The position numbers were made by a program, and so were the translations under genes. From NCBI GenBank assembly GCA_019241635.1, contig JAFAWR010000357.1, positions 1 through 34,841 of the forward strand: a stretch of 34,841 nucleotides of DNA, read 5' to 3'. A model generated the notes under the pieces. The model saw nothing but the letters and a program-made list of their open reading frames with translations. It was not told the origin of the DNA and did no database searches. This DNA is from Solirubrobacterales bacterium. Its GTDB lineage: Bacteria > Actinomycetota > Thermoleophilia > Solirubrobacterales > Solirubrobacteraceae. This document shows, piece by piece, positions 24,315 through 27,993 of the stretch (positions within the stretch are counted from its first letter, which is position 1; each line of letters opens with the position of its first letter).

Positions 24315-24372
24315 CGTGTTCTCCTCGCTCGAGTTTTCCCCACTCGGGTCCTACCCGGGTAGATTGCCGCCG

Positions 24373-24777
24373 ATGCGCTACGTCCACACCTGCGTCCGCG
24401 TGCGTGATCCCGAGGCGTCGGTGCGCTTCTACGAGGCGCTCGGGTTCGAGCGTCGCGGCCGGCTCAACTTCGAGACCGCCTACAACATCTACATGGGCCT
24501 GCCCGGCGACGGCGACACGCTCGAGCTCACCGTCAACCGTGGCCGCGAGGAGGCCTACGACATCGGTGACGGCTACAACCACATGGCGGTCGTGGTCGAC
24601 GATCTCGACGCGCTGCTCACGCAGCTGGCGGGGCACGGGGTCGAGCCCGAGAAGCCGCCCTACTCGCCCGGCGGCCGGCCGGAGATCGGGCGGATCTGCT
24701 TCGTGGCGGATCCGGACGGCTACCGGATCGAGCTGATCGACCGCGACTTCCCGACGCCCCAGGACCCCGAAGACTGA
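24373..24777 (+). CDS. Lactoylglutathione lyase-like VOC protein
   Basis: This 134-residue protein of the vicinal oxygen chelate fold closely follows glyoxalase I: MRYVHTCVRV, DTLELTVNRG, DIGDGYNHMAV and DPDGYRIELIDRD. The four metal ligands line up as H5, E51, H70 and E120. Glyoxalase I isomerises a methylglyoxal-thiol adduct. Actinobacteria lack glutathione, so the thiol is probably mycothiol or the enzyme has another substrate. The ATG at 24373 is chosen. The frame is open further upstream but antisense to the acidic protein. Confidence 0.88.
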   Translation: MRYVHTCVRVRDPEASVRFYEALGFERRGRLNFETAYNIYMGLPGDGDTLELTVNRGREEAYDIGDGYNHMAVVVDDLDALLTQLAGHGVEPEKPPYSPGGRPEIGRICFVADPDGYRIELIDRDFPTPQDPED

Positions 24778-24783
24778 CCGGAC

Positions 24784-24799
24784 GGGGCCGCCAGGCCCC
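24784..24799 (+). terminator. Hairpin after the glyoxalase gene
   Basis: GGGGCC-GCCA-GGCCCC is a perfect 6-bp G/C stem with a four-base loop, 6 bases after the stop codon. No U tract follows, so it may be a weak or Rho-assisted terminator separating the glyoxalase from the amidohydrolase operon. Confidence 0.5.
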
Positions 24800-24891
24800 A
24801 CGGACGCCGAGCGAAGCGAGGCCCAGAAAAACCCTGAGCGCGCCGGCAACGCGGGAGTAGAGTCCGGGCACCACCGTCGAGAGGAGAGGGC

Positions 24892-25938
24892 ATGTACGAG
24901 AAGGATGGCGAGAAGTACTTCGTCGTCGACGGCCACCAGCACTTCTGGGATGCCAGCCCGGAGAACTGGGTCAAGGGGCAGGAGCAGTACGCCAAGGGCT
25001 GGATCGAGTGCTTCCACGCGTACATGGGCCTCGGTCCTCCGGAGACGCACTGGCCGCTTGAGAAGTTCATGAAGTACTCCGAGGAGGACTACGTCCACGA
25101 CGTGTTCGAGGCGGGCCACATCGACCACGCCATCCTCCAGTCGACGTACCTCAAGGAGTGGTACACGGACGGCTTCAACACCGCCGAGCGCAACGCGCGG
25201 ATGGCCGAGAAGTATCCGGACAAGCTGATCGTCAACGGACGCTTCGACCCCCGCGAGGGCGAGGCGGGCCTGAAGCAGCTCGAGGAAGACGCCAAGCGCT
25301 ACAACCTCAAGGGCGTCAAGGTCTACACGGCCGAGTGGTACAACGGCTCGCGCGGCTGGAAGCTGACCGATCCCGAGGCCCAGGTGTTCCTGGACAAGTG
25401 CAAGGAGCTCGGGATCAAGAACGTCCACGCCCACAAGGGACCGACGATCTGGCCGCTCGACAAGGACGCTTTCGACGTCAAGGACATCGACGTGGCGGCC
25501 ACGAGCAACCCGGAGCTCAACTTCATCGTCGAGCACGTGGGGCTGCCCCGGATCGAGGACTTCTGCTTCATGGCCACCCAGGAGCCGAACGTGTATGCCG
25601 GGCTGGCCGTGGTGATCGGCGGCCTGATGCACGCGCGCCCGCGGTTCTTCAACAAGGTCATGGGCGAGCTCTTGTTCTGGGTCGGCGAGGACAAGCTGCT
25701 GTTCGGCTCGGACTACGGCATCTGGGAGCCTCAGTGGCAGGTCGAGGGGTTCGTCGCGTGGCAGATGCCCGACACCGAGGAGTACTCGGACTATCCGCAC
25801 CCGACGGTGACGAGCAAGAAGAAGATCATGGGGCTGAACGCCGCCAAGCTGTACGACATCGAGGTTCCCGAGGAGCTGCAGGTGCCGGGCGAGACCCCGG
25901 CCGCCCAGGAGGCGGCGGTGGGCGTCGAGTCGGCATGA
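24892..25938 (+). CDS. Amidohydrolase-2 family protein of the di-iron monooxygenase accessory type
   Basis: This 348-residue TIM-barrel metal-dependent hydrolase starts with the metal motif DGHQHFWD (13-20) and continues with NVHAHKGPT (His), FIVEHVGLPR (His) and LLFGSDYGIWEP (Asp). The sequence, from MYEKDGEKYFVVDGH to FGSDYGIW, is the type I know from propane and related soluble di-iron monooxygenase operons of Rhodococcus and Mycobacterium. Its biochemical role there is not settled. A strong GAGAGGAGAGG precedes the ATG. Its stop overlaps the next start (ATGA). Confidence 0.88.
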   Translation: MYEKDGEKYFVVDGHQHFWDASPENWVKGQEQYAKGWIECFHAYMGLGPPETHWPLEKFMKYSEEDYVHDVFEAGHIDHAILQSTYLKEWYTDGFNTAERNARMAEKYPDKLIVNGRFDPREGEAGLKQLEEDAKRYNLKGVKVYTAEWYNGSRGWKLTDPEAQVFLDKCKELGIKNVHAHKGPTIWPLDKDAFDVKDIDVAATSNPELNFIVEHVGLPRIEDFCFMATQEPNVYAGLAVVIGGLMHARPRFFNKVMGELLFWVGEDKLLFGSDYGIWEPQWQVEGFVAWQMPDTEEYSDYPHPTVTSKKKIMGLNAAKLYDIEVPEELQVPGETPAAQEAAVGVESA

Positions 25939-26651
25939 CCCCGGTGGCACGCGAGCGCGTGTTCCACGCGCTCGCCGAGGTTCACGACCCCGAGCTCGAC
26001 GAGCCGATTACGTCGCTCGGGTTCGTGAGCTCGTGCGAGGTCGGCGCGGATGGTGATGTCGAGGTGGTGTTGAGATTGCCGACGCCGCAGTGTGCGCCGA
26101 ACTTCGCGTTTTTGATGGCGGCGGACGCCCGGGGGATGCTGCGCGGCCTGCCCGGCGTCCGCGGCGTCACCGTGCGGCTCGAGGGTCACTACACGGGTCG
26201 GGAGATCAACGCGGCGCTCGACCGGGGTGAGGGCTTCGCCGGCGCGTTTCCGGGCGAGACGGCCGACGAGGACCTCGAGGCCCTGCGCGAGCTGTTCCTG
26301 CGTAAGGCGCTGGTGGCGCGGCAGTCGCGGTTGTGCGATGGGCTGCGCGCAGCAGGCGAGACGCTCGAGCAGCTCGCCGCGCGGCGGGTGGCCGACCTGC
26401 CGGACGTGCGCGACGCACACCGGTGCCTGGAGCTCCGCCGGCGGCTGGGGCTGCGGGCTGATCCGGACTCGGCCGCGTTCGTGCTGCCGAGTGGCGAGCC
26501 GGTCGCGGCCGGCGAGCTGGGGCGGTGGCTGCGCACGGCGCGGCTGGTGCGGATGAGCCTCGAGGTGAATGGCGGCATCTGTCGTTCTTTGCTGCGGGTT
26601 CGGCATGGCGTGGACATCGAAGATCCCGAGGAGGAGGTGGTGCTGCGATGA
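25935..26651 (+). CDS. DUF59/MIP18-like metal-sulfur assembly family protein
   Basis: The first 90 residues of this 238-residue protein are a DUF59 (MIP18/PaaD-like) domain: VFHALAEVHDPELDEPITSLGFVSSCEV, then LPTPQCAPNFAFLMAADA with the conserved Cys. The rest (about 100-238) is a helical region with no family I recognise outside monooxygenase operons. DUF59 proteins help deliver iron-sulfur or metal centres. In propane monooxygenase clusters this protein sits between the amidohydrolase and the alcohol dehydrogenase, exactly as here. Both ends overlap neighbours by ATGA, so the three genes are one coupled unit. Confidence 0.85.
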   Translation: MTPVARERVFHALAEVHDPELDEPITSLGFVSSCEVGADGDVEVVLRLPTPQCAPNFAFLMAADARGMLRGLPGVRGVTVRLEGHYTGREINAALDRGEGFAGAFPGETADEDLEALRELFLRKALVARQSRLCDGLRAAGETLEQLAARRVADLPDVRDAHRCLELRRRLGLRADPDSAAFVLPSGEPVAAGELGRWLRTARLVRMSLEVNGGICRSLLRVRHGVDIEDPEEEVVLR

Positions 26652-27685
26652 AGGCGGCGAGGCTGCATGGCTACCACGAGGCGCTCAAGCTCGAAGAGGT
26701 CGAGGAGCCCAAGGCGCTCGGGCCGCTCGATGTGGTCGTGCGGATCGGCGCGGCCGGGCTGTGCCGGACCGATCTGCACATCCAGGAAGGCCAATGGGCG
26801 TCGCGGTCGCAGGTCGAGCTTCCCTACACGCCCGGTCACGAGAACGCCGGGTGGATCCATGAGATCGGCTCGGCGGTCACCAACGTGCAGCGGGGCGACA
26901 CGGTGATCGTGCATCCGTTCATCACCTGCGGGCTGTGCCCGGCGTGCCGGCGTGGTGATGACATGCACTGCGAGAACGGGTCGTTTCCGGGGATCAACCG
27001 TGACGGCGGGTTTGCCGACTTCCTTTTGACCTCGGCGCGCTCGGTGGTCAAGCTCGGCCCGGGGTTGGAGCCCAAGGACATCGCGGCGCTGGCCGACGCC
27101 GGGTTGACCGCGATCCACGCGGTCAAGAAGGCCATCCCGGTGCTCGGCGCCGGAACCCGGGTGGTGGTGATCGGCGCGGGCGGCCTCGGCCATATCGGCA
27201 TCCAGTGCCTGAAGGCGATGACCCCGGCCGAGGTGATCGTGGTCGACCCGTCGGAGAAGGCGCTGGCGCTGGCCGGCGAGATGGGAGCCGATCAGACGGT
27301 TCGGGTGGACGGATCAAAGCACGTCGAGACGGTCAAGGAGATGACCGACGGGTTCGGCGCCGAGGCGATCATCGACTTCGTGGGCGAGAAGGGCGCGATC
27401 GAGGACGGCATCGCGATGGTCCGCGACGGAGGCTTCTACTACGTGATCGGCTACGGCGAGAACATCGACATCCCCACCATCGACGTCATCTCGCGCGAGA
27501 TCTCGTTCATCGGAAACCTGGTCGGGACGTACGCCGACCTCGAGGAGCTGATGACGCTGACCGCCCAGGGCCAGGTCACCCTGCACACCTCGACCTATCC
27601 GCTCGACGCGATCAACGACGCGATGGCCGACCTCGACGGCGGCCGCCTGCAAGGACGCGGAATCCTGATCCCGGCCGGCGCCTGA
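26648..27685 (+). CDS. Zinc-dependent NAD(P) alcohol dehydrogenase
   Basis: This 345-residue medium-chain dehydrogenase has catalytic zinc ligands C39 (GLCRTDLH) and H64-E65 (GHENAGW), with a third ligand probably D150. The structural zinc is bound by C94, C97, C100 and C108 (CGLCPACRRGDDMHC). The Rossmann motif is VVVIGAGGLGHIG, and an acidic residue after the second strand (VVDPSEKA) suggests NAD+. It is the type found in propane-type monooxygenase operons, where it would oxidise the alcohol formed. Its ATG overlaps the DUF59 stop. Confidence 0.92.
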   Translation: MKAARLHGYHEALKLEEVEEPKALGPLDVVVRIGAAGLCRTDLHIQEGQWASRSQVELPYTPGHENAGWIHEIGSAVTNVQRGDTVIVHPFITCGLCPACRRGDDMHCENGSFPGINRDGGFADFLLTSARSVVKLGPGLEPKDIAALADAGLTAIHAVKKAIPVLGAGTRVVVIGAGGLGHIGIQCLKAMTPAEVIVVDPSEKALALAGEMGADQTVRVDGSKHVETVKEMTDGFGAEAIIDFVGEKGAIEDGIAMVRDGGFYYVIGYGENIDIPTIDVISREISFIGNLVGTYADLEELMTLTAQGQVTLHTSTYPLDAINDAMADLDGGRLQGRGILIPAGA

Positions 27686-27708: not shown

Positions 27709-27993
27709 TCAGGCTGCGTGCCGTTCGTGCACCACAGCCCCGGGGCCCCAGGCGATCTGCTCGAGCACGTCAGGGCAGGAACCCACCGGCGCGGAGCGCA
27801 CGAGCTCGAAGGCGGTGCGGATCTTGTCCGGGAGAAACTCCAGGCAGCGCAGGTTGCGACAGTTCTCCACCGCGATGCGCACGGTCGACATGCCCATCAC
27901 GCCCGGTCCCCGCTGCATGCCCGTGACCTCGTACAGGTCGATCCCGTCAGTGATGTACGCGCCCATCTGCATCCGGGGGTCACGCTCGATCAT
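27709..27993 (-). CDS. Small conserved-looking protein of unknown function
   Basis: At least 94 residues run from the ATG at 27993: MIERDPRMQMGAYITDGIDLYEV, then VENCRNLRCLEFLPDKIRTAFELV. It has Cys residues in NCRNLRC and SCPDVLEQ. Codon use is coding-like, and it is convergent with the alcohol dehydrogenase 23 bases away. The same frame continues upstream without a stop to 28113, with GGGGAGG just before a CTG at about 28038. A CTG start would give about 15 extra residues including a Cys. Function unknown. Confidence 0.6.
   Translation of the reverse strand: MIERDPRMQMGAYITDGIDLYEVTGMQRGPGVMGMSTVRIAVENCRNLRCLEFLPDKIRTAFELVRSAPVGSCPDVLEQIAWGPGAVVHERHAA

What the first reader, a model, noticed from the sequence alone, without database searches (positions are those of the whole stretch)
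24892..27685. Orphan accessory trio of a propane-type di-iron monooxygenase operon
Seen: three genes overlap by ATGA at both junctions and encode an amidohydrolase-2, a DUF59/MIP18-like protein with an extra helical domain, and a Zn alcohol dehydrogenase. Known: the same trio in the same order accompanies the propane/acetone monooxygenase genes (prm/mim type) of Rhodococcus and Mycobacterium. Here no hydroxylase, reductase or coupling subunit is present: the trio is preceded by a glyoxalase and followed by convergent genes. Either it serves a monooxygenase encoded elsewhere or it is an independent module whose function has not been described.
Basis: partly seen in the sequence, partly recalled or inferred. 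Interest (0 to 1): 0.65.

Follow-up and report, generated by a model that had tools for sequence, protein, structure and literature searches.

The report
Stand-alone alcohol/ketone gene cassette
Three overlapping genes that were known only as helpers next to bacterial propane-oxidising enzymes turn out to be a self-standing, widely conserved cassette (usually with no such enzyme in the genome), probably for handling small alcohols and ketones, so their own chemistry can now be tested without the oxidase.

Summary
In detail: an amidohydrolase (24892-25938), a DUF59 protein with an extra helical domain (25935-26651) and a zinc alcohol dehydrogenase (26648-27685) overlap by ATGA twice. A glyoxalase-I-like gene (24373-24777) belongs with them: the four-gene block aligns end to end at 81% with a stand-alone block in a related genome. 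The trio is known beside prm/mim propane/acetone monooxygenases, and the window's closest relative has such an operon divergently next to it. But stand-alone trios are common: 23 of 37 trio-bearing Actinomycetota genomes (>=90% complete, window excluded) have no di-iron hydroxylase above the cut-off, some closed; the pattern extends to Thermomicrobium, Peribacillus, Rhizobium and haloarchaea. Linkage changed at least 9-14 times on the tree; catalytic residues are kept. The amidohydrolase-DUF59 pair is nearly obligate (74/76 loci; 17/17 plasmids). Recurrent glyoxalase, DJ-1 or glycerol-dehydrogenase neighbours suggest a C3 alcohol/ketone pathway through acetol and methylglyoxal (inference). The window's MAG is 75% complete, so a monooxygenase elsewhere in it is not excluded.

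The parts
24373..24777 (+). Glyoxalase-I-like (VOC) protein, 134 aa; fourth member of the block
   Evidence: PF00903 3e-17; carries H5/E51/H70/E120, the glyoxalase I metal-ligand pattern (ligand roles from general knowledge); below NCBIfam equivalog cut-offs; directly upstream of the trio also in L083, L097, L196
24892..25938 (+). Amidohydrolase-2 (PF04909), 348 aa, mononuclear ACMSD/decarboxylase-like ligand set H15-x-H17, H181, H215, D274
   Evidence: AlphaFold2 model pLDDT 88; best folds 3irs and dihydroxybenzoate decarboxylases
25935..26651 (+). DUF59/CIAO2-like protein with a C-terminal helical domain, 238 aa; C53 conserved in nearly all (98/99) and C216 in 96/99 homologues
   Evidence: model pLDDT 95; N-terminal part matches CIAO2B and TTHB138, helical part has no clear match
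26648..27685 (+). Zinc-dependent NAD(P) alcohol dehydrogenase, 345 aa
   Evidence: closest solved relative 1h2b, then secondary ADH-A 2xaa
25935..25938 (+). ATGA overlap amidohydrolase/DUF59
26648..26651 (+). ATGA overlap DUF59/ADH
27709..27993 (-). 94-aa conserved protein of unknown function beside the trio in L082 and L083 (flanking, probably not part of the operon)

Best explanation
The block is an independent catabolic cassette for small (probably C3) alcohols and ketones that di-iron monooxygenase operons of the prm/mim type have repeatedly been joined to and separated from. Shown: the trio is conserved, intact and under purifying selection with or without a monooxygenase, and the amidohydrolase and DUF59 genes form the near-invariant core. 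Inferred: the ADH oxidises the alcohol (2-propanol to acetone, and/or acetol to methylglyoxal); the amidohydrolase, a mononuclear-metal TIM-barrel enzyme, transforms an intermediate of that route; the DUF59 protein matures or loads the amidohydrolase rather than the monooxygenase; the adjacent glyoxalase removes methylglyoxal. In the window's lineage the ancestor probably had a divergent monooxygenase-GroEL operon upstream, lost or moved away here. Estimates: independence from a monooxygenase as a general property about 0.9; C3 ketone/methylglyoxal role about 0.5; DUF59 serving the amidohydrolase about 0.45.
For: Survey of 396 Actinomycetota genomes: 38 carry the amidohydrolase; no PF02332 over cut-off in 23 of the 37 that are >=90% complete, including 99-100% complete genomes G327, G355, G392, G535, G111 (and single-contig G198 from the class survey); MmoB/DmpM also absent in those tested; only a canonical-level GroEL match (50-53%) in the stand-alone genomes tested. 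DUF59 adjacent to the amidohydrolase in 74/76 loci, ADH directly next in 61, in all 28 phylum-survey loci L206-L233 and in 17/17 plasmid records. Linkage changes 9 times (8 forced) on a 75-row tree and 14 (9 forced) on an 85-row tree. dN/dS window vs L082 0.16/0.23/0.11. C3 role: glyoxalase neighbours in Solirubrobacterales, Rubrobacter-like genomes and Rhizobium N324, DJ-1 next to the pair in Peribacillus, GldA-type dehydrogenase in L236/L239/L245; in Actinomycetospora the Mim-cluster Adh1 and amidohydrolase are 6.1% and 3.2% of the proteome on 2-HIBA with similar levels on acetone, and an acetone-acetol-methylglyoxal route was proposed (PMC7176365).
Against: I found no biochemical data for the amidohydrolase or the long DUF59 protein. 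The glyoxalase is near the trio in only part of the loci (absent in G111/G198), and neighbouring loci are not phylogenetically independent. The window's glyoxalase scores below the curated equivalog cut-offs. The window's MAG is 75% complete, so independence cannot be proven for this organism.
Confidence: 0.55

Rival explanations
1. In this organism the trio is still the accessory set of a prm/mim monooxygenase encoded in the unassembled part of the genome.
For: The closest relative L082 (89/76/90% identity, shared downstream genes) and L089/L097 have a divergent SDIMO-GroEL operon right upstream; MAG only 75% complete and even canonical GroEL is a 93-residue contig-edge fragment.
Against: No PF02332 or PF02406 match in the assembled genome; the 24 kb upstream of the block in the window hold other genes and no SDIMO remnant; stand-alone block L196 in a sister genome; L083's genome has only a different SDIMO type.
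Confidence: 0.25
2. The block is a decaying remnant of a prm operon that lost its monooxygenase.
For: Window locus is syntenic on one side with the SDIMO-linked locus L082.
Against: All frames open, overlaps kept, active-site residues invariant, dN/dS 0.11-0.23 against L082, independent stand-alone lineages keep the pair intact.
Confidence: 0.07
3. The amidohydrolase is itself an oxygenase (like the amidohydrolase-related dinuclear oxygenases AibH2, PtmU3, SfbO) and replaces the di-iron monooxygenase, with DUF59 as metal loader.
For: Same Pfam family; TruffO, SfbO and AibH1H2 are among the structural matches (Z about 19-20); gene order hydroxylase-maturation-ADH would make sense.
Against: AibH2 binds two irons through D-x-H, H, E and D-x-x-H (PMC7782822); here the pattern is H15-x-H17, H181, H215, D274 with I277 at the D+3 place, a mononuclear set; no Rieske ferredoxin/reductase nearby, the mark used to find such oxygenases (PMC10811679); mononuclear decarboxylases match better.
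Confidence: 0.05
4. The cassette is a general carbonyl-stress (methylglyoxal/aldehyde) detoxification unit rather than a carbon-source pathway.
For: Glyoxalase and DJ-1-family neighbours without an obvious uptake or catabolic operon.
Against: High-level expression of the trio's relatives during growth on acetone/2-HIBA (PMC7176365) and repeated joining to alkane/ketone monooxygenase operons.
Confidence: 0.1

Closest known systems
prm/mim (group 5 soluble di-iron monooxygenase) gene clusters of Rhodococcus, Mycobacterium, Gordonia, Actinomycetospora (PMC4428276, PMC7176365)
   Same: Amidohydrolase ('metal-dependent hydrolase'), DUF59 ('metal-sulfur cluster biosynthetic enzyme') and ADH downstream of the monooxygenase; orthologous proteins (70-89% amidohydrolase identity in the Actinomycetota relatives fetched)
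   Different: Window has no hydroxylase, reductase, coupling protein or MimG-type GroEL linked, and has a glyoxalase directly upstream
ACMSD / dihydroxybenzoate decarboxylase-type members of PF04909 (e.g. 2dvt, 2hbv) and the uncharacterised 3irs
   Same: TIM-barrel fold (Z 20-26) and H-x-H / H / H / D ligand pattern of the ACMSD type
   Different: 14-18% identity; specificity unknown; tightly paired with a DUF59 protein
MIP18/CIAO2-DUF59 proteins (6tbn, 1uwd, TTHB138) and PaaD
   Same: N-terminal DUF59 domain with conserved DPELD and Cys53
   Different: About 150-residue C-terminal helical part with near-invariant Cys216 and no clear structural match
Aeropyrum pernix ADH (1h2b) and Rhodococcus ruber secondary ADH-A (2xaa)
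   Same: Full-length zinc ADH similarity (338 and 192 bits)
   Different: Substrate of this branch untested

Membership tests
prm/mim group 5 SDIMO gene cluster | Hydroxylase alpha/beta, reductase and coupling protein in the locus | tested here: not met
   No such gene or remnant in the 34.8-kb window
prm/mim group 5 SDIMO gene cluster | Hydroxylase somewhere in the genome | tested here: inconclusive
   PF02332 and PF02406 absent, but MAG 75% complete
prm/mim group 5 SDIMO gene cluster | MimG-type GroEL paralogue | tested here: inconclusive
   Only a short GroEL fragment at a contig edge in the own genome
prm/mim group 5 SDIMO gene cluster | Amidohydrolase-DUF59-ADH in this order, orthologous to linked copies | tested here: met
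PF04909 mononuclear (ACMSD-type) enzymes | H-x-H, H, H, D metal/catalytic residues and TIM barrel | tested here: met
   Invariant in 101 homologues except one H17A; fold matches
Amidohydrolase-related dinuclear oxygenases (AibH2/PtmU3/SfbO) | Second-metal ligand His three residues after the strand-8 Asp, D-x-H first motif, Glu on strand 6 | tested here: not met
   Motif comparison only: I277 instead of His, H-x-H, H215; no superposition of coordinates
Glyoxalase I (gene 24373-24777) | Four metal ligands H/E/H/E | tested here: met
   H5, E51, H70, E120
Glyoxalase I (gene 24373-24777) | Curated equivalog score | tested here: not met
   NF050074 87.5 vs 165, TIGR00068 63.7 vs 120 bits
Glyoxalase I (gene 24373-24777) | Turnover of a methylglyoxal-thiol adduct | not testable with these tools
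   needs an assay
DUF59/CIAO2 | DUF59 domain | tested here: met
   PF01883 52 bits; 6tbn match

The most novel reading that the evidence does not exclude
The amidohydrolase and the long DUF59 protein form an undescribed two-protein enzyme system, present in several bacterial phyla and haloarchaea, in which a dedicated DUF59 metallochaperone with an added helical domain activates an amidohydrolase that carries out the key step of small ketone/hydroxyketone breakdown, with no di-iron monooxygenase needed.
Probability: 0.35. Interest if true: 0.7.

Novelty: new variant of a known kind. Interest (0 to 1): 0.52.

Why it matters
The trio is annotated as monooxygenase accessory genes of unknown purpose. 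Showing that it usually lives without the monooxygenase, and that the amidohydrolase-DUF59 pair is the constant core in bacteria and archaea, changes the question from 'how does it help the monooxygenase' to 'what reaction does this pair do', and offers hosts without a di-iron monooxygenase where this can be tested. It bears on acetone, 2-propanol and methylglyoxal turnover in soils and hot springs and on the design of heterologous propane/acetone oxidation pathways.

Tried and rejected
Remnants of the SDIMO operon in the window: none. Upstream synteny through the window's CMD-like gene 23252: no close homologue in relatives, uninformative. Amidohydrolase as dinuclear oxygenase: considered because of AibH2/SfbO structural matches, rejected as main reading on ligand motif and lack of redox partners. 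Search for a solved relative of the amidohydrolase by sequence: none at 0.001, weak 3irs with a profile. Fold of the DUF59 C-terminal part: no clear match (whole model only, the domain was not searched alone, so absence is not shown). Sigma-70 promoter scan: nothing. Literature searches for a described function of the amidohydrolase or DUF59 protein found only mentions in prm/mim clusters.

Full report
What is there. The window is contig C65 of a 4.4-Mb actinobacterial MAG, 394 contigs, 75% complete. At 24892-27685 three plus-strand genes overlap by ATGA at both junctions: a PF04909 amidohydrolase (348 aa), a 238-aa protein with an N-terminal DUF59 domain and a further helical part, and a zinc ADH. 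A glyoxalase-family gene lies 114 bp upstream on the same strand; minus-strand genes follow.

Known context. [quoted passage not shown] smegmatis and Gordonia. In Actinomycetospora chiangmaiensis the Mim cluster is strongly induced on acetone and 2-hydroxyisobutyrate; on 2-HIBA the amidohydrolase is 3.2% and Adh1 6.1% of the proteome, with small fold changes against acetone, and the authors propose acetone, acetol, methylglyoxal, pyruvate (PMC7176365). I found no paper that assigns a reaction to the amidohydrolase or the long DUF59 protein.

Is the trio orphan here? PF02332 (hydroxylase) and PF02406 (coupling protein) have no match in the assembled genome, while the same searches find them in relatives. 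Because the MAG lacks even most of its canonical GroEL, this absence is not proof. The nearest relative, L082 (MAG Solirubrobacterales; 89/76/90% identity for the three proteins), has the same genes downstream (homologues of 27709, 28563, 29361) but a divergent SDIMO-GroEL operon upstream; L089 and L097 have the same layout, L097 with the glyoxalase between, L089 with a 26-residue glyoxalase remnant. L083 has glyoxalase plus trio and no SDIMO nearby; the only SDIMO found in its genome is a different type (43% alpha identity). The genome of L082 also holds a second block, L196, glyoxalase plus trio with no SDIMO next to it, intact; the window aligns to it in one piece from 24369 to 27681 at 81%. 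The simplest history (inference) is an ancestor with SDIMO operon, glyoxalase and trio, and loss or relocation of the SDIMO operon in the window.

How general is the stand-alone state? In 299 genomes of the class about 20 have the long DUF59 protein; roughly half have a linked SDIMO and nine, besides the window, have no PF02332 match at all, including 99% complete G111 and single-contig G198 with conserved flanks. In 396 Actinomycetota genomes of at least 90% completeness 38 (window included) have the amidohydrolase; leaving the window out, 23 of 37 have no PF02332 match over the cut-off, including the 100% complete G327, G355 (single contigs), G392 and G535 (G364 has one sub-cut-off match). 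In all 28 phylum-survey loci L206-L233 the amidohydrolase and DUF59 genes are adjacent, and the ADH follows in 27 (the other ends at a contig end). Among 76 public genome loci with enough sequence DUF59 is adjacent in 74, ADH directly after in 61, elsewhere in 7, missing in 8. On plasmids, all 17 records with an amidohydrolase above 45% identity also hold the long DUF59 gene; Thermomicrobium roseum, two haloarchaea, Peribacillus and Rhizobium N324 show no SDIMO in the fetched stretches, seven proteobacterial regions do. Stand-alone genomes tested have only a canonical-level GroEL match (50-53%), not the 59-100% MimG type.

Evolution. On a 75-row tree of concatenated trios the SDIMO label needs 9 changes, 8 forced by well-supported branches; stand-alone rows sit inside SDIMO-linked clades. 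On an 85-row amidohydrolase+DUF59 tree with archaeal, thermomicrobial, Bacillota and proteobacterial rows it needs 14, 9 forced (quick trees, long branches for the distant rows, so the deep order and the ancestral state are open). dN/dS is about 0.06-0.36 for all other comparisons in both classes (0.11-0.23 window vs L082); G111/G198 are higher (0.29-0.63). dS is biased low by the extreme GC at third positions, so these are upper-side estimates.

What the proteins look like. Amidohydrolase model: pLDDT 88, best matches 3irs (Z 25.7) and dihydroxybenzoate decarboxylases/ACMSD (Z 20-23); TruffO, SfbO and AibH1H2 at Z 19-20. H15, H181, H215, D274 are invariant in 101 homologues, H17 in 100. This is the mononuclear pattern; the extra His of the dinuclear oxygenases (H340 in AibH2, D+3) is Ile277 here. 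DUF59 model: pLDDT 95, N-terminal part like CIAO2B, C-terminal helices without clear match; C53 is conserved in 98 and C216 in 96 of 99 rows. ADH: closest to Aeropyrum ADH 1h2b and R. ruber ADH-A. The glyoxalase carries all four metal ligands, as do its counterparts near other trios, but scores below curated cut-offs.

Function (inference). The constant partner of the DUF59 protein is the amidohydrolase, not the monooxygenase, so it most likely matures the amidohydrolase. Methylglyoxal-handling genes recur beside the pair in unrelated settings: glyoxalase in Solirubrobacterales (several positions), in four of eleven Rubrobacter-like genomes within about 6 kb, where chance would give roughly 1% each (my estimate from 1-5 copies per 3-4.6 Mb, not corrected for shared ancestry), gloA overlapping the DUF59 gene in Rhizobium N324, DJ-1/PfpI in Peribacillus, VOC in Ponticoccus; a GldA-type dehydrogenase in three Rubrobacter-like loci; IclR or Fis-type (DhaR-like) regulators next to stand-alone trios. 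Together with the published acetone proteome this points to 2-propanol/acetone/acetol/methylglyoxal metabolism. The reaction of the amidohydrolase is not shown.

Verdict. Observation confirmed; interpretation partly supported. The interesting part is not that this copy is orphaned but that the 'accessory' trio is a widespread independent module whose core is an uncharacterised amidohydrolase-DUF59 pair.

Noticed in passing
L197:4127-6397 (G300:C125) and L198:5958-8657 (G160): A different SDIMO type in Solirubrobacterales in which reductase and hydroxylase beta subunit are in one open frame; in G300 the MmoB-type coupling domain lies in the same frame too (PF02332 and PF02406 matches inside it). 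No trio nearby.
   Followed up: no
L082 and L196 (genome G299): One genome carries two intact trios, one with a divergent SDIMO-GroEL operon and one with a glyoxalase and no SDIMO next to it.
   Followed up: yes
window 27709-27993, L082:12795-13079, L083:13025-13273: Conserved small protein of about 94 aa without any Pfam match, next to the trio in three genomes, inverted in L083.
   Followed up: partly
L067/L071 (G210: C456 and C354): Trio split over two contigs: amidohydrolase+DUF59 on one, truncated amidohydrolase/DUF59 pieces (one TGA inside) plus ADH on the other; rearrangement or mixed assembly.
   Followed up: no
L079 (G295, f7): SDIMO-linked amidohydrolase with H17 of the HxH motif changed to Ala, the only one of 101.
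   Followed up: no
L112, L116, L126, L129, L161: Actinoplanes-type prm loci that keep amidohydrolase and DUF59 but have no detected ADH in the trio.
   Followed up: no
L155, L156: Genomes with several SDIMOs that keep the amidohydrolase alone, without the long DUF59 gene next to it.
   Followed up: no
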